A program made the position numbers and the translations under genes. Below, one piece after another: positions 17,932-50,158 of a stretch of DNA of 64,000 bases (positions are counted from its first letter, which is position 1; the number at the start of each line of letters is the position of its first letter). Source of the DNA: Bacteroidales bacterium (GTDB lineage: Bacteria; Bacteroidota; Bacteroidia; Bacteroidales; UBA1715); assembly GCA_017642535.1 (NCBI GenBank), contig JAGCOW010000048.1, positions 27,334 through 91,333 of the forward strand. The letters run 5' to 3'. The notes beneath the pieces were generated by a model. That model was not told the DNA's origin and made no database searches. It saw only the letters and a program-made list of their open reading frames with translations.

Positions 17932-18465
17932 TTATGCAAAATAGTAGTTTGCCTCTGCTGTTCTACGACGTGTCAATCCGGCAATTACTTGTCCGCCCGA
18001 TTTGTTCCATTTTGCACATTCAGAACGTATTGACGTGTCGTTAGGGTTTGCGAGAACCTTTCTCAACAAAGTTGATTTTAGAAATGCCCCTTGACCAATG
18101 TTGTAACAAAAACATACAAGTGCGTCGAATTGGTTTTGTTTCAAGTCTTTTGTTATAGTTGCAGTTGCAACCGTTGCCTCATATTTTGCCAAATCGTTTC
18201 TGAACATATTTTCTGCCTGTTCTTTGGTTATCTGCATACCAGCCTTTACGTCGGAGCCATAGTGCCCATAACCGATTGTGTAATATTGCTCTGTCGGTAA
18301 TGCTTTGTATGCCGTAAGTTTCAACGCCTCGAATGATTTAATCAAATTCGCCCCTGCCTCTGAAACTTTCTTGCTGCTAATTGTATTTGCTACTTTCATT
18401 GTTAAACCTATTAGTGTTAAAGAAAAAGAACATAATAAAAGCCCTATTGTCGTTGATTTGTCCAT
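17932..18465 (-). CDS. GH24 lysozyme, probable signal-anchor-release endolysin
   Basis: The 177-residue protein starts with a weakly hydrophobic segment rich in Gly, Leu and Ser (residues 7-25) that could serve as a signal anchor. The GH24 catalytic region follows, with the glutamate in IKSFEALKLTAYK and the segment TIGYGHYGSD. A later NQFDALVCFCYNIG is the usual family helix. It cleaves the glycan chains of peptidoglycan. The absence of a cleavable signal and the flexible N-terminal anchor suggest the SAR type, which can reach the periplasm without a holin. Membrane proteins next door could supply holin or spanin functions. Confidence 0.85.
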   Translation of the reverse strand: MDKSTTIGLLLCSFSLTLIGLTMKVANTISSKKVSEAGANLIKSFEALKLTAYKALPTEQYYTIGYGHYGSDVKAGMQITKEQAENMFRNDLAKYEATVATATITKDLKQNQFDALVCFCYNIGQGAFLKSTLLRKVLANPNDTSIRSECAKWNKSGGQVIAGLTRRRTAEANYYFA

Positions 18466-19574: not shown

Positions 19575-19922
19575 TTATTTGTTATTATTTTTTTCTGCCG
19601 ACGCTTTACGTGTTGCACGTGGAGAAGTTGTTTTGAATTTGATAGAAGAAAGACGACGCATCAATTCTTCCTGTCCTTTCTTCAGTTCTGCATTTTCGTT
19701 TCTTACGGCCACAAGTTCCGTTTTGAGTTGCGAGTTTTCAGAACGGAGTTCTGTGACTTGGTTGATTAGGTCGCTGTTTTTGGCAACAAGCATATCAATT
19801 GTTTCCTGCAATTTGTTAAGTGTTTCGTTGTTGCGTACTCTTTTGGCGGCAAGCCACGATACCACACCTGTAACTGGTGTGAGCAAATAACCGCCGATTG
19901 TTAGTAATGTTTCAATTTCCAT
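19575..19922 (-). CDS. Membrane-anchored coiled-coil protein, possible holin or spanin-like
   Basis: The 115-residue protein has one hydrophobic segment at residues 5-26 (LLTIGGYLLTPVTGVVSWLAA), then a long heptad coiled coil (LNKLQETIDMLVAKN to about residue 90), and a basic tail. One N-terminal anchor plus a periplasmic-length coiled coil next to an endolysin is the layout of inner-membrane spanins and of some phage holin-associated proteins. The function is inferred from context. It starts 12 bp after the reverse transcriptase gene. Confidence 0.55.
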   Translation of the reverse strand: MEIETLLTIGGYLLTPVTGVVSWLAAKRVRNNETLNKLQETIDMLVAKNSDLINQVTELRSENSQLKTELVAVRNENAELKKGQEELMRRLSSIKFKTTSPRATRKASAEKNNNK

Positions 19923-19934: not shown

Positions 19935-21230
19935 TTATTCGTAACACATATAATTTTTCTTTTTAATGATTCGTGCCGAAAATGGCATCAGTTCTTTGTC
20001 GTTACTCAATCTGTCCATAATCACTGCAGATTTCGTAATGAATGTATGGAACGTCGGATTATCACAGTTTTCGTCGGCATATATGTATTTTACAACAACC
20101 TTTTTCTCTTTTTTAATCTCAACTTCCATATAGTCAATAAAAACTATCTCACGTCCCGATTCGCAAAGTGCCATTATACTTTCTCTTTGCTCCTTGGGTA
20201 CATCAAACCACGATGGGCGTGGTCTCTTTTCTGATAATTTTTTATATTCTATCATTCTGTCACCTTTTATGGTTTTCAATAAATTTTTACCGTCGCAGTG
20301 CTTCAACCAACCGTAGTAACTCGCCATTTGCATTTTCCACGTATCATCGTCGGCGTTTTTAAGGCGGTTCGACTTCTTCTTGATGTTCATTTTGATACGC
20401 TTACGCAACAAAGTATGCGTAGGATAGAACTTGTAACCTATGAAATCTAAACCACATCTGAACGGAACTATTCTCGCATTTTCCTTTACCGTCAATCCAA
20501 GTGATTCAATCTTATTCGATAGTGTTTCCAATACACTATGTGCCGACTGCTTATCTTTGGCAAAACACACTATGTCGTCCATATAACGATAATACCATTT
20601 CAAATGAATCTGCTCCTTTGCGAAATGGTCAAGCTCCGACAAAAACAGGTTGCTCAAATATTGACTTGGGAAAACTCCGATTGCAAGTCCACGACCTTTG
20701 GAATCTTCGTGGCGGTCAATGATTTTATCGAGATGTTTCAGAAGCGTTTTATCTTTGAACACACGCCGTATTGTCTGTTTCAGCTTGTCGTGCGGTATAG
20801 ACTGGTAAAACTTTTTGCAGTCTATCTGAATATAATACCAATCGGCGAACTTGTGGCGGTTTGTCTTGATTCTATTCGCACACATCTGCAATCCACGCCC
20901 CTTGATGCTCCCGTATGTGTCGTTAGTCATTTTGGAAATTATGTACGGTTTGCAAACGTCCATAATTGCGTGGTGTGCAACCTTGTCGTACAACGTAGGA
21001 CAGTGGATAATTCTTTCTTTTGGCTCGTACACCTTGAACTCATACAATTCAGAAAAATCGAACGTGCCTTCCTGCAGCTTCCTGCAAATTTCGTCAGTAT
21101 AAAACTCACGATTTTCAATAAACTCACGTTTCTGTGCATTGTTACGCTGGTGTGCGAGTGCGGCACACACCGCTTTCTCTACATTTCCTCGTGACGCTAT
21201 TTCGCTCCAAAGATTTCCAAACCGCTTCAT
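19935..21230 (-). CDS. DGR reverse transcriptase
   Basis: The 431-residue protein has the reverse transcriptase palm motifs in order: the first catalytic aspartate in IQIDCKKFYQSIPH (about D137), RGLAIGVFPSQ at 180-190, and YMDD at 216-219. A DGR/group II-like thumb start GYKFYPTH follows. The position between a template repeat and downstream genes, and the adenine-specific TR/VR pair next door, identify it as the mutagenic enzyme of a diversity-generating retroelement. It copies template RNA with errors at adenines. The motif usually reading LPIGNLTSQ is divergent here. A C-terminal extension of about 110 residues with beta-strand character follows the thumb. Confidence 0.93.
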   Translation of the reverse strand: MKRFGNLWSEIASRGNVEKAVCAALAHQRNNAQKREFIENREFYTDEICRKLQEGTFDFSELYEFKVYEPKERIIHCPTLYDKVAHHAIMDVCKPYIISKMTNDTYGSIKGRGLQMCANRIKTNRHKFADWYYIQIDCKKFYQSIPHDKLKQTIRRVFKDKTLLKHLDKIIDRHEDSKGRGLAIGVFPSQYLSNLFLSELDHFAKEQIHLKWYYRYMDDIVCFAKDKQSAHSVLETLSNKIESLGLTVKENARIVPFRCGLDFIGYKFYPTHTLLRKRIKMNIKKKSNRLKNADDDTWKMQMASYYGWLKHCDGKNLLKTIKGDRMIEYKKLSEKRPRPSWFDVPKEQRESIMALCESGREIVFIDYMEVEIKKEKKVVVKYIYADENCDNPTFHTFITKSAVIMDRLSNDKELMPFSARIIKKKNYMCYE

Positions 21231-21333
21231 AACCTAACTAATTCAACCAATTTTCACTATTACGTTACTCACAAGTCCTGTCATATCGTGATGTTCTGCC
21301 TTTCGGCAAAGTCACGGCAACAATTTATACTTC

Positions 21334-21424
21334 GTTATTTGCGGACGCCACGCCGTACACGTTGTTAGCATTGCTGACGTTGTTGTTGTTGGCACGCCCG
21401 ACCCCATCGAGACCACCCCCAGCG
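21334..21424 (-). repeat. DGR template repeat (TR)
   Basis: The 91-bp segment lies about 100 bp upstream of the reverse transcriptase start and outside any likely gene. It matches 23292-23385 at all aligned non-adenine positions of the coding (minus) strand. It is rich in AAC codons (four in a row, then two more), the usual design of a DGR template, because AAC can be changed to many amino acids. It has one AAC-type codon less than the variable copy. The end shared with VR is GC-rich (GGCGTGGCGTCCGCA). Confidence 0.95.
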
Positions 21425-21477
21425 TGGCATTCTGTCGCCGTAACTTTCAAGTTACTACTATGTCAAAGAACTCTCTA

Positions 21478-21819
21478 TTACTCAATTCCGTGGAACAGAC
21501 TTGCCGAACCTTTGGAATCTGATGCTTTTGTACCTGCACTTGTCGAATGCAACAATACGTTTGATTCGTCAAGCACCTCACTTTCTGCTATTCTCGCACT
21601 CGTTGAGTGAACAAGAACATTTGCCTCGTCCAAAACTTCCGAATCCGCAACCCGAATACTCGATGAGTGAACGGCTATCGTATATGTTGCGTTCCAATTC
21701 GTTCCGTCGTACTCATAGTATGATTCGCCACAAACAACACGTGCCGTTTCGTTCGCCGTAGGTATAAGTAACAGCAAATCATCGTATGTGTTAACCGTAT
21801 ATGTCGGATTCAATACCAT
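21478..21819 (-). CDS. Short repeat protein between DGR target and template
   Basis: The 113-residue protein has an N-terminal segment (TYTVNTYDDLLLLIP) and three imperfect repeats with the pattern SEVLDE-NVLVHSTSARIA. It starts 2 bp after the end of the DGR target, so the two are co-translated. In many DGRs this position is occupied by avd, but the protein is not basic or a helical bundle, so I do not call it Avd. It resembles a short virion or fibre accessory protein. Confidence 0.6.
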   Translation of the reverse strand: MVLNPTYTVNTYDDLLLLIPTANETARVVCGESYYEYDGTNWNATYTIAVHSSSIRVADSEVLDEANVLVHSTSARIAESEVLDESNVLLHSTSAGTKASDSKGSASLFHGIE

Positions 21820-21821
21820 TT

Positions 21822-23708
21822 CTACTCGTTATAATATTCAACAAACACCGCAAACTGAACGAACGGCATATCAATTATAGACTTGCGTAGTCTATCGGAA
21901 TAACCGCCCTGCGAAACTGGCTGCCAAGCCAAGTAGTTACCGCTTGAAATTGGCACGTTATAGTCGTCGTGTGCTATTGCACCGTTCGTCTTGCCGACAA
22001 AGTACTCTCCGAACTGCTGTGCTGGAATCCATTCGGCGTTCTGCACACGTGTATCGTCGAACATCACGCCAATCTCATAATCGGGATCCGAATGACTGAA
22101 ATCGTCTGTGCTGTTCATTGCGACAAAACTTTCGCCTGGCACTATCGTGCGTGAACGATACGTTATGTTTTCATTGCCGACGTTCAAATATGTAGCACCA
22201 GCTTGCAAGCCGTCTCCTTGCTTGATTTTAACCGTTACGGAACGACGGCAGCGGCAATATATCACATCGTTAGTGTTCGATTCGACAACAGGTACAAGAT
22301 ATGAACCAGCGTCAATGTCGGTGAACTGCGTTCCTGTTGCCGTAACCATTATGTTTTCGTCTCCGTAATACGTTACGTTGTTGTATTTGATTGTTCCGTG
22401 AACCTTGTACCAGCTAACTGGAATGTCGGTATTTTGGCTGATATATTCAGAGCTGTCACGAGAAAACATTGTTGTAAGTCCAGTAAGGTGGATTCTTTTT
22501 CGGTTCATCGGTTGTGTAGGCAGTGCGAATATGCCGTTCAACTGAACCTGTGACGGATTTATGCGTACAATCTTCGAATAGATTGCACCGCCATTTTCTA
22601 TGTTCGCTTCGTTCAAACAAATCTTGCCGTTCACAACCTCGATACAGCCCTCTATGCTTCGTTCGTCCCACGTTCCTGCCACACCAGTTGAATCGTCCAT
22701 AATCGGAATCGACAGAGCTGGCGGCAAAGCACCCAAATAGAAACAACCCGAACCAGTCGCCGTGTCACGAATAGCGTCACAATCGGGTTTCAACGTGAAA
22801 TCCAACTTTTCTGCGTCGTTGAAAATTTCGTCGCTTGTATGCGTAGAAAATATGCAGCCAAAGAACTTGACGCTCAATGTGCCACCAAGAGCGGCGACAC
22901 GTTCTACAAGACTTGCATAGCGTTCCTCGCTCGTGCTGCCTGTTATACCTGTAACTTCCGTATATGTGCTGTCGGCGTTGCCGTTGGCAAAAATGTACCA
23001 TTTCGTGTCGGCAGTGAATAAACATTCTGTAAATTCATTCGTGTCGTTCACAATCATAGCCGTTTTTGCAAAAATCGTCGTGTGGATTTTCGGCGTTCCG
23101 TAGCGAACTTTCATTATGTTCGTCACATCAATGTCGTACACGGTGGATTGTCGCAACGTAGGATTGTAGTTGCCGTTTCCATACCAAATCTTATATGCCG
23201 CCGAGTTTGGTATGATTTTGCTGTACACGATTTTTTCGACGGTGGTAAAGCCACCTAAGCATCCAAAATGCAAACAGCAGTTGTGAATGAAGTTAGGTGC
23301 GGACGCCACGCCGGACACGCTGGCAGCATTGCCGACGAAGTTGCCGCTGATGGCACGCCCGACCCCAACGAGACCACCCCCAGCGAGAGCCGTGACGTTA
23401 ATGATTATCATATCGGTCATAGTAACGCCCCAAGTGGTGTATTTGAACTGTCCGTCGAAAACCGAAGCTCCGTAAAAATCGCCGATGATTTCTGAACCGT
23501 TAGAACCATAATATCCTTGGCCGTTCATATCTTCTGCAAAATAACCGATGCAAACCGCTTTCTTTTTGTTAGTCAATACGCCTGCCTTTGTAAGCGTCTT
23601 GAAAGGTTTTGCCTGTGAACCGTCGCCAAGCGTGTCGGAACCAAGCACGCTGTGAACGTACATAGCACCCGAAATCGTCTTTCTCCATTTAATTGGTCTT
23701 GTAGCCAT
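21822..23708 (-). CDS. DGR target protein, predicted beta-helix surface or receptor-binding protein
   Basis: The 628-residue protein opens with YVHSVLGSDTLGDGSQAKPF and KTLTKAG, the pattern of DUF1565-type right-handed beta-helix proteins. It continues with many short strand-turn segments. The DGR variable repeat covers residues 108-139 (GGGLVGVGRA to ASAPN) and is followed by a cysteine-rich patch (CCLHFGC). The C-terminal part contains ordinary beta-rich segments. It lies between the 909-residue surface protein and the DGR template. A receptor-binding role is inferred, since most DGR targets bind ligands. Unlike the common case, the variable region is not at the C-terminus. Confidence 0.8.
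   Translation of the reverse strand: MATRPIKWRKTISGAMYVHSVLGSDTLGDGSQAKPFKTLTKAGVLTNKKKAVCIGYFAEDMNGQGYYGSNGSEIIGDFYGASVFDGQFKYTTWGVTMTDMIIINVTALAGGGLVGVGRAISGNFVGNAASVSGVASAPNFIHNCCLHFGCLGGFTTVEKIVYSKIIPNSAAYKIWYGNGNYNPTLRQSTVYDIDVTNIMKVRYGTPKIHTTIFAKTAMIVNDTNEFTECLFTADTKWYIFANGNADSTYTEVTGITGSTSEERYASLVERVAALGGTLSVKFFGCIFSTHTSDEIFNDAEKLDFTLKPDCDAIRDTATGSGCFYLGALPPALSIPIMDDSTGVAGTWDERSIEGCIEVVNGKICLNEANIENGGAIYSKIVRINPSQVQLNGIFALPTQPMNRKRIHLTGLTTMFSRDSSEYISQNTDIPVSWYKVHGTIKYNNVTYYGDENIMVTATGTQFTDIDAGSYLVPVVESNTNDVIYCRCRRSVTVKIKQGDGLQAGATYLNVGNENITYRSRTIVPGESFVAMNSTDDFSHSDPDYEIGVMFDDTRVQNAEWIPAQQFGEYFVGKTNGAIAHDDYNVPISSGNYLAWQPVSQGGYSDRLRKSIIDMPFVQFAVFVEYYNE
23292..23385 (-). repeat. DGR variable repeat (VR)
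   Basis: The 94-bp segment aligns with the template 21334-21424. Outside a 3-bp length difference in the AAC run, I count eight substitutions, all at template adenines on the coding strand: GAT to GTT, AGC to GGC, AAC to GCC, AAC to AGC, TAC to TCC and AAT to CCT. The AAC run reads ATC AGC GGC AAC TTC here, also explained by adenine changes. Confidence 0.95.
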
Positions 23709-23723: not shown

Positions 23724-26453
23724 TTATTCTACGTATCTTGTTGATTCTAACCACCACGTTCCGTCACCGTCGTACAGCAACGTCGCAACACACGACTGGT
23801 TAGCCTCTCCTGTCGAAAAATCAAACTCGCTTGGATTCTTAACGGCAACGGTAGAACCGTTTCCGTCGTCCATAACGATGTAGAGATTTCTTCCGCCTGT
23901 GGAATCCTGCACGATTTTGAGTTGACAAGAAAATGCGTTGCTTTTCAATGTTTGTATGTTTGGCAATACGATTGTATTGTTGCTGCCTGTGAGCGTAAAT
24001 TTCATCATCTTCTTTATGTCGCTCAATACAAGTGTGCCGCTCACATTCACATTGCTGACGTCTGAACTTTTGAATACGCCACCTGTAGTTATTCCCGTAG
24101 GGTCGAATGTCGCACCGCTCTTTGCTATCCAACGCAAAACGTCACGTAAGTTTACCGAATAGAGGAATGTTACTGAATAAGGCGGTATATGCTGTGCCAA
24201 ACCTGTATAAGGATTTTCACTGTATATGGTTGTTCCGAATATGTGCATATCTCCGAAATCCCATACGTTCAACAATCCGTTGAAAGCAACGTCGCTCGTC
24301 TCATATTGAGCAAGCTCGTACATCAGATTCACACCGTCGGTCAGTTGTGCGAGAACTTCGGGGTCTTCATAATCTGCCGTGAAGTACAACACGCCATTTT
24401 CGTCGGTCTGTGCGTTACGCAAGTGTGATAGAGTGTCGTGTGTGATTGTCGTCGTGCTGCGTTTTATCACGCTTGAAAGCGACGATGTTTTATAACCCAT
24501 AAACTGTTCTTCGTCAGTTTGGGTAGAAGGGTTATACACCGTTTGTGTCCAACGTGACCATTGCAAATCAGCCGTATTCGCAACGCCTATGCGTTTAATA
24601 TACTTGCCGTCGCTATTGATTTCATCACAAGCAGAGCCAATGCCATACAATCCATATTCGGAGCATACGGCAGGAAGATTCAACACGCTTTCCTCATAAT
24701 CCACGAAAGAGAATTGGCTCTCTCCATACGACCACGCAAACTGAATAGACAAACAATCTTGTTTTGCGGTAAGTAGTGAAAATACAATCCAACCGTTATC
24801 GGGAGCGATGTATGTAGAAGCGTTTCCGTGCGTTCCACGTGTAAGAATTGTAACTTCGTCGGTCTCGTCAGTCGGTTGCGGTATCTGAAATCCAAGATAC
24901 TCGAATCCTATTCCCGACAATGTTTCGCCACTTTTTACGACTGGTACATATCCATTGTTACCGCCGTCCACGCCTTGCAACACATTTACAAAAAACAACG
25001 TGTACGACGAATCGCTTGTTATTGTTCCGTCGCTATTGAGTTTCTTTCCGACAATGCGTTTTGCTTCGTCTTGGTAATTGAATAGATTTGTTCCACGGCT
25101 CACAATGTGAGTTGCTGTAAACGGCTTTAATTTGCCGTCGTCTTCGCCAATTAGCGACAAAATAAGATTACCTGTAATCTTTTTCAGAATGCCTGTTGAA
25201 GATTCTGCAATACTGACTTCGCCACCGCTCGTTTGCCAAACAAATGCTGTGTTGTCAATAACAGCGTCGTCCTCGTTTGGCGTTATGTCACGTGCAAATC
25301 CAACGGACAATGCCGAAAAATAGCCTGCAAGTTCTCCTATAAGCGGTTGCCATTTTTCGCCATCGAAATAATAATGTGTACCAGCAGGAATGTTGCCGTG
25401 TCTGTCCGTAACCTTATATGTTCCGTATGTCGTTTCATTTTCGGGCAATTCTGCGTATTCACATTCCCCTTTGTAACTAAACAAGTTTGCGATTGCACGG
25501 CTTATTTCGCCGCCTATCATCGAATATACGTAGTCTTTATGTATTGTAACATATCCTGTCGTGCTTGAAATCAACGTCTCTGAAACGTATGTAGTCACAA
25601 AACGACCGTGTATGTGCAATGTAGGCGACGCTAAATTCGTGATTGTGCCTACTGGCACGTGCGAATAGTAGTTATAAATGTTGCAAGCCTTATCAACGTT
25701 TGTTGTAAGAGGGTTTGCTATTGTCGTTCCACCATACGGATTGAATGTAACGACAAAAGACACTTCGTTGTCGAAACGTATGTTCAACTCTTTTGAACGA
25801 TTAAGACTTGTGATTTTCAACTGCCAAATATCCTTAATCGGTTGCCCCGAAATGATTATATCCTTTACATTGGGATTTATATTCCATTCCGTATAAGTTT
25901 CGGCAGTATGTTCTACGGTCGGTGCGACAATAGGAGTGGAGCAAAATATCTTTATGCTGTCGTCTGCTACTGACAACGCCTGTATAAGTTCCTCCCACGA
26001 TTCAACACACACTTGCATACGACCAATGTCATATTTGTATTTTTGCTCTCCATACGCCTGTCTTGCAACTGCAATTTCGTCGCCGTGTTTTGTGACCGTA
26101 GGTAATGGAGACAAACCACTAATTGAATCGTTATACGCTGACACATCGAGAATTTCCTCGTAGCTCCATTCTTCCTCGTTCCACATCAACGCACAGAGCG
26201 AAGTTGTCGGGAAATTCAACTCGTCGAAATTCACATACACGCCACGCTCCAAGCCCCAAGCAAGATAATACACTTTGCCCTGTGTCGTGTCGGGAACGGT
26301 GTTTTGTTCTGCCATACCCATATACGTATAGCCGTCAAGTATTTCGCTCTTCGCTTCAATCGCCTCTTCAATGTCGGATTCGCTTACAGTTGATTCGACA
26401 GTTATAATGTCGAATTTTCCCGTAAATGGATTGTATGTGACTTTCTTTTTCAT
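23724..26453 (-). CDS. Large surface or fibre-like protein
   Basis: The 909-residue protein opens with TYNPFTGKFDI, a start I associate with Bacteroidetes phage fibre proteins. A helical stretch (SESDIEEAIEAKSEIL) follows and then long beta-rich regions. Segments such as YYFDGEKWQPL and a C-terminal beta sandwich (KFTLTGSNNTIVLPNIQ to TLLYDGDGTWWLES) are typical of phage receptor-binding or tail-fibre tip proteins. It sits directly upstream of the DGR target, with 15 bp between. The exact fold is not recognised. Confidence 0.6.
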   Translation of the reverse strand: MKKKVTYNPFTGKFDIITVESTVSESDIEEAIEAKSEILDGYTYMGMAEQNTVPDTTQGKVYYLAWGLERGVYVNFDELNFPTTSLCALMWNEEEWSYEEILDVSAYNDSISGLSPLPTVTKHGDEIAVARQAYGEQKYKYDIGRMQVCVESWEELIQALSVADDSIKIFCSTPIVAPTVEHTAETYTEWNINPNVKDIIISGQPIKDIWQLKITSLNRSKELNIRFDNEVSFVVTFNPYGGTTIANPLTTNVDKACNIYNYYSHVPVGTITNLASPTLHIHGRFVTTYVSETLISSTTGYVTIHKDYVYSMIGGEISRAIANLFSYKGECEYAELPENETTYGTYKVTDRHGNIPAGTHYYFDGEKWQPLIGELAGYFSALSVGFARDITPNEDDAVIDNTAFVWQTSGGEVSIAESSTGILKKITGNLILSLIGEDDGKLKPFTATHIVSRGTNLFNYQDEAKRIVGKKLNSDGTITSDSSYTLFFVNVLQGVDGGNNGYVPVVKSGETLSGIGFEYLGFQIPQPTDETDEVTILTRGTHGNASTYIAPDNGWIVFSLLTAKQDCLSIQFAWSYGESQFSFVDYEESVLNLPAVCSEYGLYGIGSACDEINSDGKYIKRIGVANTADLQWSRWTQTVYNPSTQTDEEQFMGYKTSSLSSVIKRSTTTITHDTLSHLRNAQTDENGVLYFTADYEDPEVLAQLTDGVNLMYELAQYETSDVAFNGLLNVWDFGDMHIFGTTIYSENPYTGLAQHIPPYSVTFLYSVNLRDVLRWIAKSGATFDPTGITTGGVFKSSDVSNVNVSGTLVLSDIKKMMKFTLTGSNNTIVLPNIQTLKSNAFSCQLKIVQDSTGGRNLYIVMDDGNGSTVAVKNPSEFDFSTGEANQSCVATLLYDGDGTWWLESTRYVE

Positions 26454-26457: not shown

Positions 26458-27573
26458 TTATTGTTGTAAGAGTTCTATCTTCTGAATGAGACTGTTGTCG
26501 TTGTGGAACGCACCCATAAGTTGCCAAATACGTTCAAAATCTTCGTCGGAAAGTGTTTTTAGGAATTTACCGATTTCAGCAATCTTTTGTGAACGCTCAT
26601 CGTCGGCTACTGGTTCTACTTCAACGTCTGTCACGGGTGCTGCAACTGTTTGTTGAGCAACTTCGTTGTCATCGTTATCAAGCATTTTCTTGAAATCCTC
26701 GCCGTTCATACCTGCAAGACTTCCGACAAACGATGCGTGTTTGCGTGCAAGATTCTCGACGATTTTTGTACCAACTCCTATTAGAGAAACACCTGCGAAT
26801 GAATGTTCTGGTTTTAGTTTCTCCAATTCCTCTATTTGCTCGTTGAGTTCGTCAATTTCATCTTCAAGTTTTTCAGAATATGCCTGTTCGTCGGCAAGCT
26901 CTTTCTTTACACCCTCAAGTTCAGATTCGAGTTTGGTTTTCTCTATTAGAAGATTGTCGTATCTTTCTTTTTCTTTCTCTCGTTTGAACTCTTCCCGGAT
27001 ATTATTTTCACGCACAGCCATAATAGTTCCGAAAAGCCCCATATTTTTGTTCTCAAAACCTTCAAGCGACGTATTGACGTCGAATCCCATTAGTTTGAAC
27101 ACGTCGTTCATTCCTGCCATACTCATACCGTTCTGCGGTTGCTCTTGTTGTGGTTGCGGTTGGGGTTGTGGCTGAACTGGATGTTCTGTCGTTTCCTCAT
27201 ACCGTTCCTGTTGAATGATTATATTAGTCGGCGTAGTGGCACGTTTGGTTATAATCATCCATTTGCTGTTTTTTAACGGCTGGCCAGTGGTTTTTTTAAT
27301 GAGTACTTGTATTGCTATGTTATTGGGATTGCTTAATATAGTCGAAATTGTATTGTCGTAAGACGACATAATTTCGGATTCTTTCGCTCCTTTTGTCACC
27401 ATAATGGTGTCCCTCGATTGGAATCCACTACCAATCGTCTCGTTCAAAAATTCAATGTCGATTCTGATTTCTTTTCCTGTCGAAATTGCATTCGACACAC
27501 GTTGTGAGATAACCGAACGTACTTCATTTTTTCGGTTCTCAATTTCTGTAATGCTTAATTCTTCTTGTGCCAT
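26458..27573 (-). CDS. Coiled-coil structural protein
   Basis: The 371-residue protein has an N-terminal beta-rich domain of about 130 residues, a proline/glutamine linker (PVQPQPQPQPQQEQPQ), and a long coiled coil at about residues 195-255 (KLESELEGVKKELADEQAY). A small helical end domain follows. It is encoded 4 bp before the 909-residue surface protein, so a bridge between virion shell and fibre is plausible. No family is recognised. Confidence 0.55.
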   Translation of the reverse strand: MAQEELSITEIENRKNEVRSVISQRVSNAISTGKEIRIDIEFLNETIGSGFQSRDTIMVTKGAKESEIMSSYDNTISTILSNPNNIAIQVLIKKTTGQPLKNSKWMIITKRATTPTNIIIQQERYEETTEHPVQPQPQPQPQQEQPQNGMSMAGMNDVFKLMGFDVNTSLEGFENKNMGLFGTIMAVRENNIREEFKREKEKERYDNLLIEKTKLESELEGVKKELADEQAYSEKLEDEIDELNEQIEELEKLKPEHSFAGVSLIGVGTKIVENLARKHASFVGSLAGMNGEDFKKMLDNDDNEVAQQTVAAPVTDVEVEPVADDERSQKIAEIGKFLKTLSDEDFERIWQLMGAFHNDNSLIQKIELLQQ

Positions 27574-27595: not shown

Positions 27596-27958
27596 TTATG
27601 TTTTCAGTACCGGGGAGACACGAATAAAATCGAGCCGAAAGTCGGGAACATTCTCATATTTAGTTTTTACTTTAATTATGAGAAATGTTTTGAACAGCTT
27701 ATTGATAGACGTGCCCATTTGCGAAAGTTCCCTTTGTGTACATTCAATAGATTCAGTAGGCGATATGAGTTGCACCGTTGTAGTGTCTGCTACAAGGTCG
27801 TTGTTGCCAATACGGATTCCTGTCATTATAAGGCTTTCGTTAGCAAGTGACAAAACTTTTTCTTTCTCGTCAACTACTATGCTTGACGGAGTTACAACAG
27901 TGTCATATCCAAGCGAATGCAAACGCTCCTGTTCTATCTGTACAAGTCTATCTATCAT
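27596..27958 (-). CDS. Small beta-rich late protein
   Basis: The 120-residue protein has a short helical start and then alternating strands, ending FRLDFIRVSPV. It overlaps the upstream gene by 11 bp. It is the last of four consecutive beta-rich proteins that may share a common sandwich fold. No motif is recognised; a virion role is inferred from context. Confidence 0.55.
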   Translation of the reverse strand: MIDRLVQIEQERLHSLGYDTVVTPSSIVVDEKEKVLSLANESLIMTGIRIGNNDLVADTTTVQLISPTESIECTQRELSQMGTSINKLFKTFLIIKVKTKYENVPDFRLDFIRVSPVLKT

Positions 27959-28493
27959 ATTCTATGTATATTTTTACTTTGTAGTTGTTGCTAACATAGC
28001 CCGATTCCATTGGGTGATAGGCACTACGTTTCAAGTTTGGTTCAGAATCACGCTCTTCAACAATAATCGTTAGCGTGCTTCCACCTTTGAGTTCAATAGA
28101 TTCAGACAACTCTATTTTGTTGTTGGCGAACGTGCTGTCGTATCGTAGGTTGTTCGCTCCAAGTGTTGTCGATGAGTTCATATTCAATGCGACAAGCGGT
28201 GTTCCTGCGAGAATTGTCTTTGTGTTGTTTACAGAAATCGATACGTTTCCAATCTGTATGCTGTAGAAATCGTTCCACTCAATAGTAGTTCCTCCTTGAC
28301 CGCTCTCCACTTTTTTTCTGTTTCTGTCGGGAAGCATTCTTTTATCGTGCCCCTTTGCCGTTAGACCATTGAGAACGGCGAAACAGCAAATCGACTTGAT
28401 ATTGCGTACTTTCGACGGAATATTCACAGTGCGTTGGAACACGTTGCCCCACTCACTTCTATTAGGAACTTCTATTTCTGCTATGTACAACAT
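27948..28493 (-). CDS. Beta-rich late protein, candidate virion protein
   Basis: The 181-residue protein is strand-rich throughout (for example IQIGNVSISVNNTKTILAG and STLTIIVEE) and ends VKIYIEYDR. The end resembles those of the two genes upstream (VNIYVVLENE and VDLYLCFIYKK), which suggests related beta-sandwich folds. No cysteine or catalytic motif stands out. It may be a capsid, vertex or spike component. Confidence 0.55.
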   Translation of the reverse strand: MLYIAEIEVPNRSEWGNVFQRTVNIPSKVRNIKSICCFAVLNGLTAKGHDKRMLPDRNRKKVESGQGGTTIEWNDFYSIQIGNVSISVNNTKTILAGTPLVALNMNSSTTLGANNLRYDSTFANNKIELSESIELKGGSTLTIIVEERDSEPNLKRSAYHPMESGYVSNNYKVKIYIEYDR

Positions 28494-28498
28494 ACTTT

Positions 28499-28879
28499 TT
28501 ATTCGTTTTCAAGCACAACGTATATATTTACTTTTATAGCTTCCGAAGAGCTGTTTGACAACACCAGTTCAAATTCGCTTGAACGTGCTGGAATGTTATC
28601 TTTTGAGAAATCGTACACTACTTTGTCACGTTCCACGTTGCCGTTGAATGTTACAATTGATGCGTCAGTTCCTTTTGGCAATATCTCGTTTCCTGCAATT
28701 TTTAGAAACAAACTGATTGGCGACAAGTCCTTTTTGTTTGCAGCAAAAGGCACGATGAAGAATCCTGTTGCTTTTGCATATTGTTCTTTCAATTGGTCAG
28801 AAATCACAAGTTCGCCGTCGTTGCCGTCGGCACGTGCTGGAACTTCTTGTCCACGCCATATTTGGTAACTCTTTTTCAT
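28499..28879 (-). CDS. Beta-rich late protein sharing the EILP-x2-TD motif with its neighbour
   Basis: The 126-residue protein contains NEILPKGTDASI, a YDF segment, and the end KVNIYVVLENE. The 417-residue protein just upstream has GEILPPNTDVCL, LLDF and VDLYLCFIYKK in the same order, so the two look like paralogous domains. It begins 1 bp after the end of that gene. A jelly-roll or similar sandwich fold is possible but needs structure prediction. Confidence 0.58.
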   Translation of the reverse strand: MKKSYQIWRGQEVPARADGNDGELVISDQLKEQYAKATGFFIVPFAANKKDLSPISLFLKIAGNEILPKGTDASIVTFNGNVERDKVVYDFSKDNIPARSSEFELVLSNSSSEAIKVNIYVVLENE

Positions 28880-28880: not shown

Positions 28881-30134
28881 TCAACTTAATTTTTTATAGA
28901 TGAAACACAGGTATAAATCCACGTTTGCGTATTCCAAATCTTTTTCGGTTGCAAGTTCGTCGTCGTTTTTGTTAAGAGTGATGAGCAATGATTTCTTAAC
29001 ATTACCCTCGAAGTCAAGCAATGCTTTACGCCACGATATTTTTTCGGTAGCTGCATACAGGCATACGTCGGTATTTGGTGGTAGTATTTCGCCCTCGGTT
29101 CCCGAAAGCGACATATTATAATGTATATCGCTATTGACTACACGTTCAAATTGTTCCAACCAACTGTCGTTGTATTTAGGAGCTACGGAGTAAATCGGGA
29201 AAGCGAACATTTTTTCCACTATTCCGTCGAATTGCAATGCCTGCTCTACGCCGAACGCAACCTGTGAATTGTCCATTTGTTCGTATAAAAGACGATAATC
29301 GCTATCTTTATACATATTCCCGCTACCTACTGGTATTTCCAACTCGTAACCGTCGGTGTATGGGTCAACTGGTTCGTCGTATGGTTCTACGGCTGGTGCA
29401 GTTGGTTCTTCGGGTTCTGTTGGTTCTTCGTAGCGTGGAGTTTCGGGTGGTTGCGGCTCTTCGCCCTGTTCTCCTCCTTCTTCCCACTCTTGGTGTGCAG
29501 TTTCGTAGTCAGCCCACGCTTGTTCGTTGTCAGCCCACGCTTGGTGGTCTATTTCCCATTGTGCGTGTGCAGTTTCCCATTGTGCGTGTGCAGTGTTGTA
29601 ATCTTCCCACGCCTGTTGGTTTTCTTCCCACGCTTGGTGGTCAACAACCCATTGTGCGTGTGCTTCACGAAATTTATTTTGTAGATACGTTAGTGCCTCA
29701 CGTGCCGTATCGAAATATTTTCCTTTAAGTTTGATTTTTCGGGTTTCTACAAATTCGTAACCCGTAGCTTCGTCTATTGTTTTGTCGGAACAAACGAAAA
29801 CAATGTTGAAATCGTTTGCGTTTACTTTCGACAGACTATTCTTGACGAAATCTATTTTTATTTCCGAAAAGTTCACATTCAAATTAACTTCGAGTGCTAC
29901 ATCTTCCCAACGATGCTTGTGTGTGCCGTATGGCTGGCTCGTCATAAACGGGAGAATCGGAAGATTGCGGCAAATCTGCTTGCCGTCTATAAGTATTGAT
30001 ACCATATCGATTATTTTCTTGTATTCAAACACAGAATCATTTTTACTCTCGAAAAACACGTGAGTTATTGACTTTGCACCTGCTGGTGTCTGCGTCAGAA
30101 TTGTGTCGGTATCGCTTGGTATCGTATAGAACAT
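28881..30134 (-). CDS. Two-domain beta-rich protein with tryptophan-rich repeat insert
   Basis: The 417-residue protein has an N-terminal strand-rich domain (to about residue 120), a helical repeat region around residues 153-215, a proline/glutamate linker (about 220-265), and a C-terminal strand-rich domain similar to the next gene. The repeats have the pattern AHAQWE and DHQAWADNEQAW at roughly 7-residue steps, which should form a tryptophan-lined helix bundle. It is preceded by a strong terminator. It may be a spike or penton-like virion protein. Confidence 0.6.
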   Translation of the reverse strand: MFYTIPSDTDTILTQTPAGAKSITHVFFESKNDSVFEYKKIIDMVSILIDGKQICRNLPILPFMTSQPYGTHKHRWEDVALEVNLNVNFSEIKIDFVKNSLSKVNANDFNIVFVCSDKTIDEATGYEFVETRKIKLKGKYFDTAREALTYLQNKFREAHAQWVVDHQAWEENQQAWEDYNTAHAQWETAHAQWEIDHQAWADNEQAWADYETAHQEWEEGGEQGEEPQPPETPRYEEPTEPEEPTAPAVEPYDEPVDPYTDGYELEIPVGSGNMYKDSDYRLLYEQMDNSQVAFGVEQALQFDGIVEKMFAFPIYSVAPKYNDSWLEQFERVVNSDIHYNMSLSGTEGEILPPNTDVCLYAATEKISWRKALLDFEGNVKKSLLITLNKNDDELATEKDLEYANVDLYLCFIYKKLS

Positions 30135-30234: not shown

Positions 30235-30825
30235 TTAGGCTTTGTTGGTTTTAACACCGTAGAATACACATTTGATGAATGTGTTATTCGTTGTTTCGTC
30301 GCAAGGTGCGGCTAAATACAATGTAGGAATAATATCCGACAACGGAGTTACCATTTTTGGAGAATCGAATGCTACATATCCAACCAACTTGTCAGAATAC
30401 TGACTTGTGCGGAATGCTTCGCAAGACGAACGAGGCATTAAAATGCGGTCGCCTTGTTTCAGTTCGATTTCACCATTTGCAATCGTTTGGTCGATTTTAC
30501 CGTAATCAGCTGCGGCAACAGCTTCGTCAGTTGTTCCACGTGTTTTTGCAGCTGAAGATTGAAGCAACTGCATACCTGTGAACAAGGCATATTCGTTAGC
30601 TTCCAATTTACGGCTGTTTACGTTAGTTACACCTACTTTCTTTTTGTCGGCGGACTGCATCAACTCGATAGTTGTGTTAGTGCCGATGTAACGTGCAGCA
30701 TACATAGAGTAATCTACGAGTTGCACAACCTTGTTTTTCAATGCCGATTGCATTTCGACCGAAACTTGACCGATACGTGCTGCGAATTCTTCTTTTGCAG
30801 CTGCTATTTTTACTACGTTTTCCAT
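30235..30825 (-). CDS. Candidate major virion protein of unknown fold
   Basis: The 196-residue protein has a helical N-terminal third (AAAKEEFAARIGQVSVEM) and a mixed, strand-rich remainder with EIELKQGDRILMPRS. It has no signal peptide, membrane span or catalytic motif. It is the only late gene here followed directly by a strong internal terminator, and its composition is like that of an abundant structural protein. I suggest it as a capsid candidate, with low certainty. No family is recognised. Confidence 0.5.
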   Translation of the reverse strand: MENVVKIAAAKEEFAARIGQVSVEMQSALKNKVVQLVDYSMYAARYIGTNTTIELMQSADKKKVGVTNVNSRKLEANEYALFTGMQLLQSSAAKTRGTTDEAVAAADYGKIDQTIANGEIELKQGDRILMPRSSCEAFRTSQYSDKLVGYVAFDSPKMVTPLSDIIPTLYLAAPCDETTNNTFIKCVFYGVKTNKA

Positions 30826-30861
30826 TGTTTTCTTATTTTTTTGTTTATACTTTTTTTTCTT

Positions 30862-31401
30862 TTACACGAAGTCAAATCCATTAACCAATGAATAGTCAGC
30901 ATCACCGACCACGCCCATCATATTGCTTGGGTCGGGATGAACGACCTGCAACTCGTTGTTGTCAGGTAATTGGTCGTAGTTTGTGATTTCCACAGTTTCG
31001 CCAACACCCGGCATAATCGGAGTTAATGGTTTATCATCATCATTACCGCTCAAAGCGATTTTAGTTTCACCAGCGATTGCGTTTACAAGGTTTACACCAC
31101 CTGCTGCGCCAATGCCAAGAGCAACCGTTTTCAAAGTGTCGTTCTTAACTGCTGCGTGAGTAACCAAGCCAACACCAATCATTGCTGCTGGAACCACAAA
31201 CTTCGATGATGTTCCGTCCAAGCCCAAAAGGTCAGTTCCCGAAACAGCATCTTTCTTTTGCACGAATTTTTGTACCATAGTACCGACTGCGATACCTGCT
31301 ACAAGTGCAGCACCTTTTTTAGCATAGTTTGCTACGCCACCCATAGAGAAAGTCTTCGGGCTTTTAGTGCTGCGTCTTTTACGTTTTTTAGACTCTGCCA
31401 T
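30862..31401 (-). CDS. Glycine-rich membrane protein with basic N-terminus
   Basis: The 179-residue protein starts with a very basic segment (KKRKRRSTKSPK), then has two or three glycine/alanine-rich hydrophobic segments (AALVAGIAVGTMV, VVPAAMIGVGLVTHAAV, VALGIGAAGGVNLV). The C-terminal tail is acidic and polar. The layout suits a small integral membrane protein with a DNA-facing basic end. Together with its neighbours it suggests an internal virion membrane, which is inference. Confidence 0.58.
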   Translation of the reverse strand: MAESKKRKRRSTKSPKTFSMGGVANYAKKGAALVAGIAVGTMVQKFVQKKDAVSGTDLLGLDGTSSKFVVPAAMIGVGLVTHAAVKNDTLKTVALGIGAAGGVNLVNAIAGETKIALSGNDDDKPLTPIMPGVGETVEITNYDQLPDNNELQVVHPDPSNMMGVVGDADYSLVNGFDFV

Positions 31402-31426
31402 TTTTGTAAAAATTTTATGTTAATAA

Positions 31427-31888
31427 CTATTGTAATGCGAGCACTTTCTTGCCCGATTTCTTACTTTTCTTACTTGTTTTTTTAGATTTTTTTGGCTTCT
31501 TCGTACCGTTCAATGCAGCCGTTGCTGTTTTGCCCGATGCAGATGAAACACTTTTCTTCTTGTTGCCGTCAATTAACGAGTAAATGAGACAACCGCCAGC
31601 AACAACACCCAAGCAAATTGCTCCGATTTTGATGCCTCTCTTTGCCTTTTCTGATAGATTGATGTTCATAAATCCTTTCTTTTTAGTTTGACCTGTTATT
31701 TGTTTGAATAATTCTTCCGAACAAGTTGTTACATTGTACAGATTCTTCAACGCTGTTTCGGTTGCATTCCAAAACTTTCCGTCTGCCTCAACGCCTAATG
31801 CGGTCTGCAAGACCTTGATGTTTTCGCCCTGCATTCCCTTTGCAAGTGGAAAACTTTCTGCCGTGTACGATGTTGGTGTATTTGCCAT
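31427..31888 (-). CDS. Membrane protein with peptidoglycan-binding domain
   Basis: The 153-residue protein has an N-terminal peptidoglycan-binding type 1 pattern (LAKGMQGENIKVLQTALG, then DGKFWNATETALK), one membrane span near residues 85-103 (IGAICLGVVAGGCLIYSL), and a lysine-rich C-terminus (KKPKKSKKTSKKSKKSGKK). A cell-wall-binding head, a membrane anchor and a basic DNA-side tail suggest a virion membrane protein used during entry. The domain call rests on motif memory. Confidence 0.6.
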   Translation of the reverse strand: MANTPTSYTAESFPLAKGMQGENIKVLQTALGVEADGKFWNATETALKNLYNVTTCSEELFKQITGQTKKKGFMNINLSEKAKRGIKIGAICLGVVAGGCLIYSLIDGNKKKSVSSASGKTATAALNGTKKPKKSKKTSKKSKKSGKKVLALQ

Positions 31889-31900
31889 AGTTATAATGTA

Positions 31901-34717
31901 TTAGTTATCTTTATTTCGAGTTAGTAAAATCGCACCACCAATCAGAACCGCAGCACCTATACCTATTCCTAAAATAAGTTTTGTATTGTCTTTCGTTGCC
32001 GAGTTGTCGGTTTGCTCATTGTTGCCCTGCGTAGCGTCGCCGCCCGAATATCGTTGCGACATATTAGCAACCGCCGTCGTGACGAGTGCCTTTCCTGTCT
32101 CCTTGATGTTCTGAGCCGCTTGGCTGCTTGCTATATTCTTGACTGTATCTTTTGCGTTCGATGTAAAGTTCTTAACACGTTCCTTCAACGGAGTTTTTTC
32201 TCCACTGGCAATCTTCGCTTGTCGGTTTTCCTTGAAATTCTGTATTCTGTTTTTCAAAGGAACTTTCTCGCCACTTGCTATTTTTGCCTGTCGGTTATCT
32301 TTTATTTTTTGTACGGTGTTCTTAACGGCGTTCTTAATCTTGCCGCTTGCAAACACTTTTTTCAAACCACCGAGGATTTTTGCCAAAATTCCACCTGCCG
32401 AAGCTGCACCGCTCGCTACCGTAGCTTCGGTTACAACTCCAAGACCATTTACAATGTAACCGTTCTCGATTAGTCCGAGGATTCCCTCTACTGCAACTTC
32501 AACCTCTTCACGTGTTTCGCTGTACGTAACATTCGGGTCGTTGCTCGATGTTGCACCTGCCTTTTTCAATTCGGCTTCGTCTTGGTCGTATTCAGAATCA
32601 ATTGATTTTTTGTTTTTAAGAGCGGCTGCGGTAAGTTCCTTTACAGACAATTCGTCGCTTCCTTTCCAAACTTTTTTAGAACCTTTTTCGAGATTTTTTT
32701 TCAGCTTCGATTCCTTACCGCCTATTTTGGTAAAACTCTTTACAAGTTTATCGTAAGCATCTTTCGACGCTTTATATTGTTCAGAGGAAAGACCGAGTTT
32801 CGCCGCATCCGATTCACTCATAGTTCCCGGATACATACGTTCCGCCATTTTGAACATATTGAGCGAACAAGCCATAAGGATTATGGCACGTGCCACAAGT
32901 GTAACGGGATTGTACTTAACAACAAATTTCACTATCTTCTTTACGGCTTTCTTAACTGCTTGTGCAGTTTTCTTTGCCGCAGTTGCGACTGCCTTTCCTG
33001 TTTTCTTTGCAGCTGTCTTTACAGCATTTCCAGTTTTTTTAGCGGCCGTCTTTATGGCACTGCCTGTCTTTTTTGCTGCTTTCTTTACTGCATTTCCAAC
33101 CTTTTTGAAAAATTTCTTTCCAAGAGAATGTTTTTCCGCTTCGGCAATACGTTGTGCAAGTTTCGCCTTGAGCGTAGTATTTTTAGCAGCTTTCTGCAAA
33201 GATGCTTTCATAGCCGAAAGTTTCTTCGTCTTTTTAATACTTGCCTTACGTGCTTTCTTTACTGGCAATGATATTTTTGCAACGGCAGCACCAAGACTGT
33301 CGGCAAAATTCTCGTATTGCTCGTAATTCATTCCTGTACCGCATAACTTTTCAACGGCATCTGCGTTGTCCCAGTTGTTGATTGCGTAGCCAAGCAAACC
33401 ACGAACATTCTCCAATTCGTCGGTGTCTTCAACATACAGTGCTGGATTTTCGTTAACTATTGCAAGCGTGTTTGCAAGAAGCTGTTTTGTGTCGTCGGTA
33501 GAACCGAGACCAACGCCGTTGAGCGTGCGTTTGATTACAGCTTTCTTTACCGCCGCATTGTTATTTACAGGTTTTACCATCGGATTGATTTTAGCAGCCG
33601 TTGGCAACGATTTTCCACCGTCTTTCTTCGATTTCTTCAATGCTTTGAAAAACGAGCGGATGCGACCTTGACGCTTCATAGCTCCAAGTCCCTGCATAAA
33701 ATCATAGTATTCGTCATCGTTCATTCCGTCGCCCGAAAGTTGTGAAATCACAACGTCGAACGCTGGAGTTCCGAGATTCAACAACGCATATTCCAACGCA
33801 CCAACCGTAACATCTTCGTTGTTGCGTGTCGCAAACAATTCATCGGAATGACGTTCAACGGCACGTGTTGTAGATTGTAGGTAGTTTTTAATCGAATCTC
33901 CGTCAACTCCGTTCAAGTTTTCGTAGAAATCGAGACCAAGCAAAACCGACTGAACATCGTCGTCGAAACCGTTGAGACCGCTCACGGCAGTTGCTACGTT
34001 TTGCGTAATAACCTTTGATTGTTTTGTAGCCTTGTCGGTTACAAGCGATTTCTTTGCTTTGCGGCTTTCCGCAATTTTTTTACGGAGATTGTTTTTTATC
34101 TTGTTAAGATACGGATTCGAGTTTACCACCTCGTTGGCATCTTTCGATATGTTTGCGTTGTTGTTAAGTTTCTTGATATTACGGAAGAAACCTGTCTTGC
34201 CTTTCTTTACCTTAATTGCTTTCTTTATTCCTTCTGTGGTTGCAACCGTACCAATTTCCTCGTATTCATCATTGTCGATAGGTTCATCAACGCCAACCAA
34301 ATCAACATCGTCGGCATCGTCGGCAAGATTTACCTTGATTGCACCAAGTCCAATCAATCTTTCTTCCTCTGCAACCATAGCGTCTAATGCAGCCTCACGG
34401 TTTGCCGTGTCCCAATGTTGAAGCACGTAGCCCAACATTTTAGAGAAATCCTGCGGATTTTGGTAGTCGCGAATCGACTGCGGGTATTTGTCGGCAACAA
34501 TTTTTGTACGCACCAAATATGAACGGAGTTTTTCGGAATCTTCAACACTTCCGTCGCCTTGGAAACCTGCAAGGTCGTAGCCGTTAACCAACGTGTCGAT
34601 ATTCTCTATCGTGTCGTTGTCGTATCCACGCAACACATCGGCAACAAGTTGAACCGTGTTGTCGTCATTATCAACGCCGTGAAGAAATTCCAATGGTATG
34701 CCGTTTAATTCTTTCAT
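31901..34717 (-). CDS. Large repeat-containing membrane-anchored late protein
   Basis: The 938-residue protein carries three copies of a helical domain of about 100 residues in its first half. Copies end in GLGAIKV, GLGAMKR and SLGAAVA and contain LGYVLQHWD or LGYAINNWD. A basic middle follows with repeats of KKTGSAIKTAAKKTG, then a hydrophobic segment (VARAIILMACSLNMF). Two copies of KENRQAKIASGEK come later, and a C-terminal membrane span (LILGIGIGAAVLIGGAILL) closes the protein. It could be a multi-contact scaffold or entry protein of the virion. Its start overlaps the upstream gene by 4 bp. Confidence 0.6.
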   Translation of the reverse strand: MKELNGIPLEFLHGVDNDDNTVQLVADVLRGYDNDTIENIDTLVNGYDLAGFQGDGSVEDSEKLRSYLVRTKIVADKYPQSIRDYQNPQDFSKMLGYVLQHWDTANREAALDAMVAEEERLIGLGAIKVNLADDADDVDLVGVDEPIDNDEYEEIGTVATTEGIKKAIKVKKGKTGFFRNIKKLNNNANISKDANEVVNSNPYLNKIKNNLRKKIAESRKAKKSLVTDKATKQSKVITQNVATAVSGLNGFDDDVQSVLLGLDFYENLNGVDGDSIKNYLQSTTRAVERHSDELFATRNNEDVTVGALEYALLNLGTPAFDVVISQLSGDGMNDDEYYDFMQGLGAMKRQGRIRSFFKALKKSKKDGGKSLPTAAKINPMVKPVNNNAAVKKAVIKRTLNGVGLGSTDDTKQLLANTLAIVNENPALYVEDTDELENVRGLLGYAINNWDNADAVEKLCGTGMNYEQYENFADSLGAAVAKISLPVKKARKASIKKTKKLSAMKASLQKAAKNTTLKAKLAQRIAEAEKHSLGKKFFKKVGNAVKKAAKKTGSAIKTAAKKTGNAVKTAAKKTGKAVATAAKKTAQAVKKAVKKIVKFVVKYNPVTLVARAIILMACSLNMFKMAERMYPGTMSESDAAKLGLSSEQYKASKDAYDKLVKSFTKIGGKESKLKKNLEKGSKKVWKGSDELSVKELTAAALKNKKSIDSEYDQDEAELKKAGATSSNDPNVTYSETREEVEVAVEGILGLIENGYIVNGLGVVTEATVASGAASAGGILAKILGGLKKVFASGKIKNAVKNTVQKIKDNRQAKIASGEKVPLKNRIQNFKENRQAKIASGEKTPLKERVKNFTSNAKDTVKNIASSQAAQNIKETGKALVTTAVANMSQRYSGGDATQGNNEQTDNSATKDNTKLILGIGIGAAVLIGGAILLTRNKDN

Positions 34718-50111: not shown

Positions 50112-50158
50112 CCTTGTGACCCCGGAGAGGCTCGAACTCTCGACCCATTGATTAAGAG
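50112..50158. repeat. Right attachment site (attR), 47-bp direct repeat
   Basis: Identical to 9578-9624 and lying within tRNA-Lys, from its 3' end to the anticodon loop. Confidence 0.93.

What the first reader, a model, noticed from the sequence alone, without database searches (positions are those of the whole stretch)
19935..23708. Complete diversity-generating retroelement with adenine-specific TR/VR divergence
The 91-bp template (21334-21424) and the 94-bp copy in the target gene (23292-23385) agree at every aligned non-adenine position. Eight substitutions outside a short AAC run are all at template adenines on the coding strand, and the run itself is also explained by adenine changes. 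A reverse transcriptase with YMDD lies next to the template. This is the defining pattern of a DGR and shows it has been active.
Basis: partly seen in the sequence, partly recalled or inferred. Interest (0 to 1): 0.95.

Follow-up and report, generated by a model that had tools for sequence, protein, structure and literature searches.

The report
Self-diversifying spike in tailless provirus
An element inserted in a bacterial chromosome, predicted to be a dormant tailless virus, carries a mutating retroelement whose template and target copies differ only at template adenines and which likely rewrites one loop of the virus's predicted spike protein, so a host-recognition trick known from tailed phages would also serve a very different group of viruses.

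Summary
The DGR is real. TR (21334-21424) and VR (23292-23385) differ at 12 positions, all template adenines, plus one 3-nt insertion. The RT's best solved match is the BPP-1 DGR RT. Over 15 TR/VR pairs (window and 14 relatives), 166 of 273 adenines but 3 of 1,032 other bases differ; two contigs with identical TRs have VRs differing only at TR adenines.

(2) The cassette sits in a 40.5-kb tRNA-Lys provirus (47-bp att repeats) whose 417-aa ORF is predicted to be a double-jelly-roll (tailless-virus) capsid protein; collinear relatives without it carry another fibre-type protein in that slot, and the nearest outside cassettes are in tailed phages. (3) A hairpin inside the coding sequence, 36-42 nt past VR, occurs in 11 of 14 loci (1.4 expected under synonymous shuffling): a likely target-recognition element.

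Activity now, spike role, virion type and the hairpin's function are inferred. A new variant of a known system.

The parts
21334..21424 (-). Template repeat (TR), 91 bp, intergenic between the 113-aa ORF and the RT
23292..23385 (-). Variable repeat (VR), 94 bp, codes for residues 109-139 of the target; 12 substitutions against TR, all at TR adenines, plus one 3-nt insertion
23241..23255 (-). Hairpin embedded in coding sequence, 5-bp stem, 5-nt loop, 36 nt 3' of VR; likely target-recognition element (function inferred)
19935..21230 (-). DGR-type reverse transcriptase, 431 aa, YMDD, C-terminal extension of about 100 aa
21822..23708 (-). DGR target, 628 aa; residues ~2-330 predicted right-handed parallel beta-helix; predicted receptor-binding spike
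21478..21819 (-). 113-aa ORF between target and TR, no Pfam match; not recognisable as Avd
23724..26453 (-). 909-aa predicted fibre/spike protein with N-terminal NPFTGKFD motif; first gene of the variable slot
28881..30134 (-). [quoted passage not shown]
26458..27573 (-). 371-aa coiled-coil protein bordering the slot, homologue in all four double-jelly-roll relatives
19575..19922 (-). 115-aa coiled-coil protein bordering the slot on the other side, tblastn homologue in three of the four relatives
27596..28879 (-). Three small proteins (120, 181, 126 aa) next to the capsid gene, found in the same order in all four relatives
30235..35781 (-). Predicted virion genes: 196 aa, 179 aa (hydrophobic segment), 153 aa, 938 aa (hydrophobic segments), 355 aa transglutaminase-like; each with homologues in at least one relative
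17932..18465 (-). Phage lysozyme with N-terminal hydrophobic segment
9757..17344 (-). 458-aa P-loop ATPase, 1337-aa strawberry-notch-type helicase, 718-aa MuF_C protein (methyltransferase-like only by weak match); homologues in three of the four relatives
9578..9624 (+). attachment repeat, left (47 bp, exact copy of 50112-50158)
50112..50158 (+). attachment repeat, right, 43 of 47 bp inside the 3' part of tRNA-Lys (50116-50189)
48708..49913 (-). Tyrosine integrase

Best explanation
This is a diversity-generating retroelement, carried by a provirus predicted to be a tailless double-jelly-roll virus, that likely keeps randomising one surface loop of a predicted beta-helix spike so that the virus would bind changing receptors. 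Shown by sequence: TR, VR, RT, adenine-only divergence, variation in relatives with a constant TR, att repeats, and the hairpin. Predicted: the beta-helix fold, the loop position of VR, the capsid fold. Inferred from known DGRs: TR is transcribed, the RT copies it with errors at adenines, and the cDNA replaces VR, guided by the shared GC-rich 3' end of TR/VR and by the hairpin that lies inside the target's coding sequence 36 nt further on. Twelve VR codons can change their amino acid (22 adenines, 4^22 = 1.8e13 DNA variants), while the other positions of VR stay fixed. The whole cassette sits in the slot where related double-jelly-roll proviruses carry another fibre-type protein, and its nearest relatives outside this element family lie in tailed phages, so it was likely acquired as a ready-made host-recognition module.
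Confidence: 0.8

Rival explanations
1. An ordinary tailed-phage DGR: the 417-aa protein is not the capsid protein, and the element is a tailed prophage or tailed-phage satellite whose terminase and tail genes were missed.
For: The closest cassettes outside this element family are in tailed phages; MuF_C and crAss001_48-type domains are present; a weak PHROG tail-protein match of the target.
Against: First 19 fold matches of the 417-aa model are all double-jelly-roll viral capsid proteins; no terminase, portal or HK97 capsid family among the families shown for 40 ORFs at E <= 0.001; the gene block around the 417-aa ORF recurs in four further elements.
Confidence: 0.13
2. A DGR fossil: the cassette was active in the past but this copy no longer works.
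For: No Avd recognised; no reads available.
Against: RT and target are open frames; TR and VR still agree at every non-adenine site; the 97%-identical P0001 already carries a different VR (8 of 17 differences in residues 108-139).
Confidence: 0.15
3. [quoted passage not shown] 2021 proposed for uncharacterised VR domains.
For: They report annotated VR regions as systematically C-type lectin (PMC8144416, one section and passages read).
Against: Beta-helix model and fold matches over residues ~2-330, which contain VR; VR is followed by 489 further residues.
Confidence: 0.05
4. The hairpin 3' of VR is a by-product of the conserved GGxTAV-type protein motif and codon bias, not a DGR signal.
For: Most hairpins encode that motif; stems are mostly 5 bp, shorter than the 7-10 bp reported for phage DGRs; some loci also have a hairpin 3' of TR.
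Against: 11 of 14 against 1.36 expected with the protein held constant; L024 and L030 form hairpins at the same place from different sequences, and the window swaps GGC..GCC for GGT..ACC, keeping the pair.
Confidence: 0.15

Closest known systems
Bordetella phage BPP-1 DGR (mtd/avd/TR/brt)
   Same: Same order target-TR-RT on one strand; RT alignable; hairpin 3' of VR. Adenine-specific TR/VR divergence (as described in the papers read).
   Different: BPP-1: tailed phage, C-type lectin Mtd, VR at the 3' end of the gene, 8-bp hairpin at and past the stop codon, Avd present. Here: predicted tailless virus, predicted beta-helix, internal VR, 5-bp coding hairpin, no Avd recognised.
crAss-like phage DGRs (e.g. 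CrAssphage LMMB)
   Same: Closest RTs in 50,697 phage records, about 40% identity over 336 aa.
   Different: Gene upstream of the LMMB RT is annotated tail-collar fibre; zeta-crAss targets are C-terminal C-type lectins (PMC12386605, passages); the target here has no match in those records.
Tentaclins (DGR targets with N-terminal VR)
   Different: Their VR domain is C-type lectin followed by Ig domains; here predicted beta-helix.
phiCjT23/FLiP and other double-jelly-roll phages
   Same: Predicted capsid fold; spike swapping proposed for this group (PMC9719478, passages).
   Different: phiCjT23 has a 7.6-kb ssDNA genome against 40.5 kb here; no DGR in the passages read.
Beta-helix tailspikes (Fri1 gp49, K2-2 TSP)
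   Same: Predicted same fold class.
   Different: No DGR known to me for these (recalled); here the loop is diversified; a catalytic site was not looked for.

Membership tests
Diversity-generating retroelement | RT of DGR type next to TR | tested here: met
   PHROG RT family 2e-96; best PDB match BPP-1 brt 7.7e-29, ahead of group II intron RT 1.2e-15. NCBIfam's best, group II intron RT, is far below its cut-off
Diversity-generating retroelement | Non-coding TR and a VR in a target gene that differ at TR adenines | tested here: met
   12 of 12 mismatches at A, 0 elsewhere
Diversity-generating retroelement | VR varies at TR adenines between close relatives while TR is constant | tested here: met
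   In relatives L025/L026; for the window itself only at protein level against P0001
Diversity-generating retroelement | Hairpin-type target element 3' of VR | tested here: met
   As a sequence feature only: coding hairpin in 11 of 14 loci; shorter stem and 5-nt loop than the known ones
Diversity-generating retroelement | Avd accessory protein (common, not universal) | tested here: inconclusive
   No ORF of the cassette recognised as Avd
Diversity-generating retroelement | Mutagenic retrohoming in cells | not testable with these tools
   needs culture or reads
Canonical DGR target (C-terminal VR in a C-type lectin domain) | VR at the C-terminus | tested here: not met
   residues 109-139 of 628
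Canonical DGR target (C-terminal VR in a C-type lectin domain) | C-type lectin fold around VR | tested here: inconclusive
   Positive match of residues ~2-330 to beta-helices argues against it; absence from a list does not exclude it
Right-handed parallel beta-helix spike | Beta-helix fold | tested here: met
Right-handed parallel beta-helix spike | Part of the virion, binds receptor | not testable with these tools
   inferred from gene position
[quoted passage not shown]
   Predicted fold only; no credible sequence match among PDB chains
Double-jelly-roll (Bamfordvirae-type) virus | FtsK/HerA packaging ATPase (absent in the FLiP and Odin groups, PMC5894146) | tested here: inconclusive
   458-aa P-loop protein matches AAA_24/KaiC-type families; homologues in three of four relatives
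Double-jelly-roll (Bamfordvirae-type) virus | Tailless particle, often with internal membrane | not testable with these tools
   Hydrophobic segments in several structural ORFs by a simple hydropathy scan are only suggestive
Tailed phage (Caudoviricetes) | Terminase, portal, HK97 capsid | tested here: inconclusive
   None among the families shown for 40 ORFs, lists truncated at 25

The most novel reading that the evidence does not exclude
The parallel beta-helix is a second natural scaffold for massive DGR variation besides the C-type lectin fold; a recognition hairpin written into the coding sequence frees VR from the gene's 3' end; and this module has crossed between tailed phages and a tailless double-jelly-roll virus, giving that virus realm a targeted spike-mutating system.
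Probability: 0.7. Interest if true: 0.9.

Novelty: new variant of a known kind. Interest (0 to 1): 0.82.

Why it matters
[quoted passage not shown] This family would be a counter-example to the fold rule, and it suggests how the cis-element problem is solved, by a hairpin written into the codons, which synonymous mutation can test. It would also be a targeted-diversification system in a tailless double-jelly-roll virus, which bears on the spike-swapping idea for that group (PMC9719478). A beta-helix loop region with 12 variable codons is also a possible natural library scaffold.

Tried and rejected
C-type lectin target: none among the 50 listed fold rows for the target, which is not proof; kept as a rival at low confidence. 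Foldseek alone gave poor whole-chain TM-scores (mostly 0.05-0.25) for the target; I rely on VIA-align. Sequence routes to the fold gave little: Pfam none for the window's target, PHROG 'tail protein' 1.5e-4 over residues 16-42, NCBIfam LIC10774 surface protein 4.5e-4, far below its cut-off, weak DUF1565 for homologue P0044, PDB only asparaginyl-tRNA synthetase N-domain at E 0.05.

Avd: the 113-aa and 115-aa neighbours were considered; no match supports it. The RT's C-terminal extension was considered as a special feature of this family, but an alignable extension occurs in Bacteroides phage p00, so I dropped it.

An inverted repeat CACCTAA/TTAGGTG around VR's end was seen by eye and not pursued. 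Hairpins 3' of TR: 7 of 14 loci have one of 5 bp or more within 70 nt, and in 5 of them (L018, L019, L021, L022, L029) it starts at TR+33 to +36; the window has none. This was not tested against chance and may mean that structure near that distance is not special to VR. A second hairpin at VR+58-69 occurs in 6 of 14 loci but not in the window.

Searches that found nothing: close relatives of the target by protein in viral contigs; capsid alignment in viral contigs; target and capsid in 50,697 phage records. The target alignment in 393 genomes of the order gave 26 genomes with a match, only 2 of them full-length (own and G093, which is L015's genome by coordinates); the other 24 are partial, most over 40-90 N-terminal residues. 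Capsid: 4 of 393 genomes. Two flanking stretches of the own contig were fetched and not analysed.

Literature: (open-licence PMC only, no bioRxiv library). The listings and the passages I read show no DGR with a beta-helix target and none in a double-jelly-roll virus. One search listed 3 papers with DGR and beta-helix: passages read in 2 (neither describes such a target in the passages shown), the third, on Bordetella pertussis, not opened. One search listed 5 papers with 'jelly-roll' and DGR: passages read in 4. Absence from print elsewhere cannot be claimed.

Rows dropped: L031 (identical to L030); L026 from the hairpin tests only (near-copy of L025); L020, L028, L032 had the target but no TR/VR pair in the fetched DNA. 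So 15 of 18 target loci had TR/VR, and all 15 had an RT.
Full report
Observation. With neutral scoring they align over 91 columns with 12 mismatches and one 3-nt gap in the AAC run. All 12 mismatches are at template adenines (22 adenines in TR; hypergeometric P 2e-9) and there is no other mismatch. TR lies in an intergenic stretch between a 113-aa ORF and the RT; gene order on the minus strand is target, 113-aa ORF, TR, RT, the order of target, TR and RT in Bordetella phage BPP-1. TR and VR are the only two copies found in the 2.78-Mb genome at the settings used.

The enzyme. The 431-aa RT matches RVT_1 (2.5e-20) and the PHROG RT family (2e-96). Among solved structures its best sequence match is 8ub7_A (7.7e-29), ahead of a group II intron RT (1.2e-15); the BPP-1 brt gene matches that same chain over its full length. 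NCBIfam's best model is group II intron RT at 101 bits against a cut-off of 300 and PADLOC lists a general RT and UG17 first. Among 50,697 phage records 152 match, the nearest being crAss-like phage RTs at about 40% identity over 336 residues.

Adenine specificity across relatives. Target-alignment searches gave 18 loci (4 in bacterial genomes; 14 in viral contigs). Fifteen of the 18 have a TR/VR pair, found by a scan that tolerates changes at A, and all 15 carry an RT relative; L030 and L031 are identical. Over the window and 14 of these loci, 166 of 273 TR adenines differ in VR against 3 of 1,032 other bases (neutral alignment). Because the scan favours A, the control treats each base in turn as the free one: pairs appear for A in 15 of 15 stretches, C 0, G 1, T 0. 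Two contigs, L025 and L026, 96.4% identical over 3.5 kb, have identical TRs and VRs that differ at 11 of 85 positions, all at TR adenines, against 80 of 1,771 in the rest of the target gene. The 97%-identical protein P0001 differs from the window's target at 17 residues, 8 of them in residues 108-139 (Fisher P 3e-7). The lineage is therefore diversified by the system; whether this copy is active now is untested.

The slot. Capsid relatives occur in 4 of 393 genomes of the order, including the own one. In four relative elements (G005 C41, G009 C67, G324 C16 and C21) the capsid, 126-, 181-, 120- and 371-aa genes are in the same order; the 196-aa to 355-aa genes follow in part where the contig reaches, and the 458-, 1337- and 718-aa genes are found in three of the four. 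Beside the 371-aa gene the window has the 909-aa protein, target, TR and RT, while G005 and G009 each have a single protein (347 and 258 aa) between the 371-aa and 115-aa homologues that starts, like the window's 909-aa one, with an NPFTGKFD-type motif; the two G324 elements have several genes there. No homologue of RT, target or 909-aa protein was found in those stretches; the RT relatives in G009 and G005 lie on other contigs, and G324 has none. The nearest cassette relative, L015 (RT 56%, target 51% identical), lies beside a terminase and a major head protein; L016 and L017 have tape-measure proteins and L016 a baseplate hub; L031 has a terminase; the two L018 proteins scanned gave no such match. 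The cassette therefore looks like a module shared between tailed and double-jelly-roll viruses. Direction of transfer was not tested.

The hairpin. Phage DGRs have a hairpin or cruciform 3' of VR: 7-10-bp stems, 4-nt loops, 4-34 bp from VR, required for efficient homing in BPP-1 (PMC3240598, passages), and such cis-acting elements have been given as a likely reason why VRs sit at gene ends. Here VR is internal, yet 36 nt past it the window has GGTGG-5 nt-CCACC in the reading frame (only match to that pattern in the window). At VR+32 to +46, 11 of 14 loci have a stem of at least 5 bp; with the protein fixed and codons drawn from each gene's own usage, 1.36 are expected, and 0 of 200,000 draws reach 11. 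Over offsets from -320 to +1,388 no other 14-nt window exceeds 6 of 14. L024 and L030 make their hairpins from other sequences, and the window changes both sides of a pair (GGC..GCC to GGT..ACC). Independently, the folding excess over synonymous shuffles is strongest at VR+30 (mean z -2.15) and VR+0 (-1.64), -1.02 at most in windows over VR itself, and not below -0.88 elsewhere. Against it: L015, L018 and L027 lack it there (L018 has a 10-bp hairpin at +68 and L027 a 7-bp one at +75), the window's own stem is short, the region was noticed before the test was fixed, and five loci also have a hairpin at TR+33 to +36. Its role in homing is inferred.

Mechanism. The TR transcript would be copied by the RT with errors at adenines, and the cDNA would replace VR, entering at the shared GC-rich 3' end and guided by the hairpin. 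The 3-nt longer VR suggests that a codon can be gained in the AAC run, and loop length also varies among homologues. The predicted outcome is a beta-helix spike with one constantly renewed loop.

Novelty. It meets the DGR criteria that could be tested. What differs from the described kind is the predicted target fold, a coding hairpin with an internal VR, and the predicted virus type. In the open-licence papers searched the listings and passages read show no report of the first or the third; the survey of gut varidnaviruses has no occurrence of 'reverse transcriptase' or 'retroelement' in its main text (PMC9502842, term counts).

Noticed in passing
L016:14199-16200: Downstream of the prophage RT in L016 lie two ORFs that look like Cas1 and Cas2 (by eye) and an array of repeats with a unit of about 45 nt, i.e. 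a likely CRISPR array next to a DGR prophage.
   Followed up: no
L023:12096-13631 and L025:12090-13406: In these relatives TR lies inside the open frame that continues into the RT, so the template would be translated as an N-terminal RT extension.
   Followed up: no
L025:12309-13640, L027:12452-13700: RT frames of these relatives contain in-frame stops under table 11, which may mean stop-codon reassignment, frameshift or decay.
   Followed up: no
L005, L008, L009, L010: RT relatives with adenine-specific TR/VR pairs in a target repeat that looks (by eye) unlike both the beta-helix loop and the C-type lectin motif.
   Followed up: no
   Followed up: partly
L016, L018, L021, L023, L024, L030 at VR+58 to +69: A second hairpin in 6 of 14 loci, up to 10 bp, of differing sequence.
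   Followed up: partly
L018, L019, L021, L022, L029 at TR+33 to +36: A hairpin 3' of the template repeat in 5 of 14 loci, not in the window; could be part of the template RNA.
   Followed up: no
window:11163-17344: A 1337-aa strawberry-notch-type helicase and a 718-aa MuF_C protein, both ending in nearly the same basic tail with ALMLKMKM; homologues in a double-jelly-roll relative (G005) reach 91% identity although its capsid is only 35% identical.
   Followed up: partly
window:37599-41710: Two DNA methyltransferases (C5-cytosine and N6/N4 type) in the element.
   Followed up: no
window:197-6097 and 59474-63976: Large surface proteins with SprB, PKD and type IX secretion sorting domains on either side of the provirus.
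   Followed up: no
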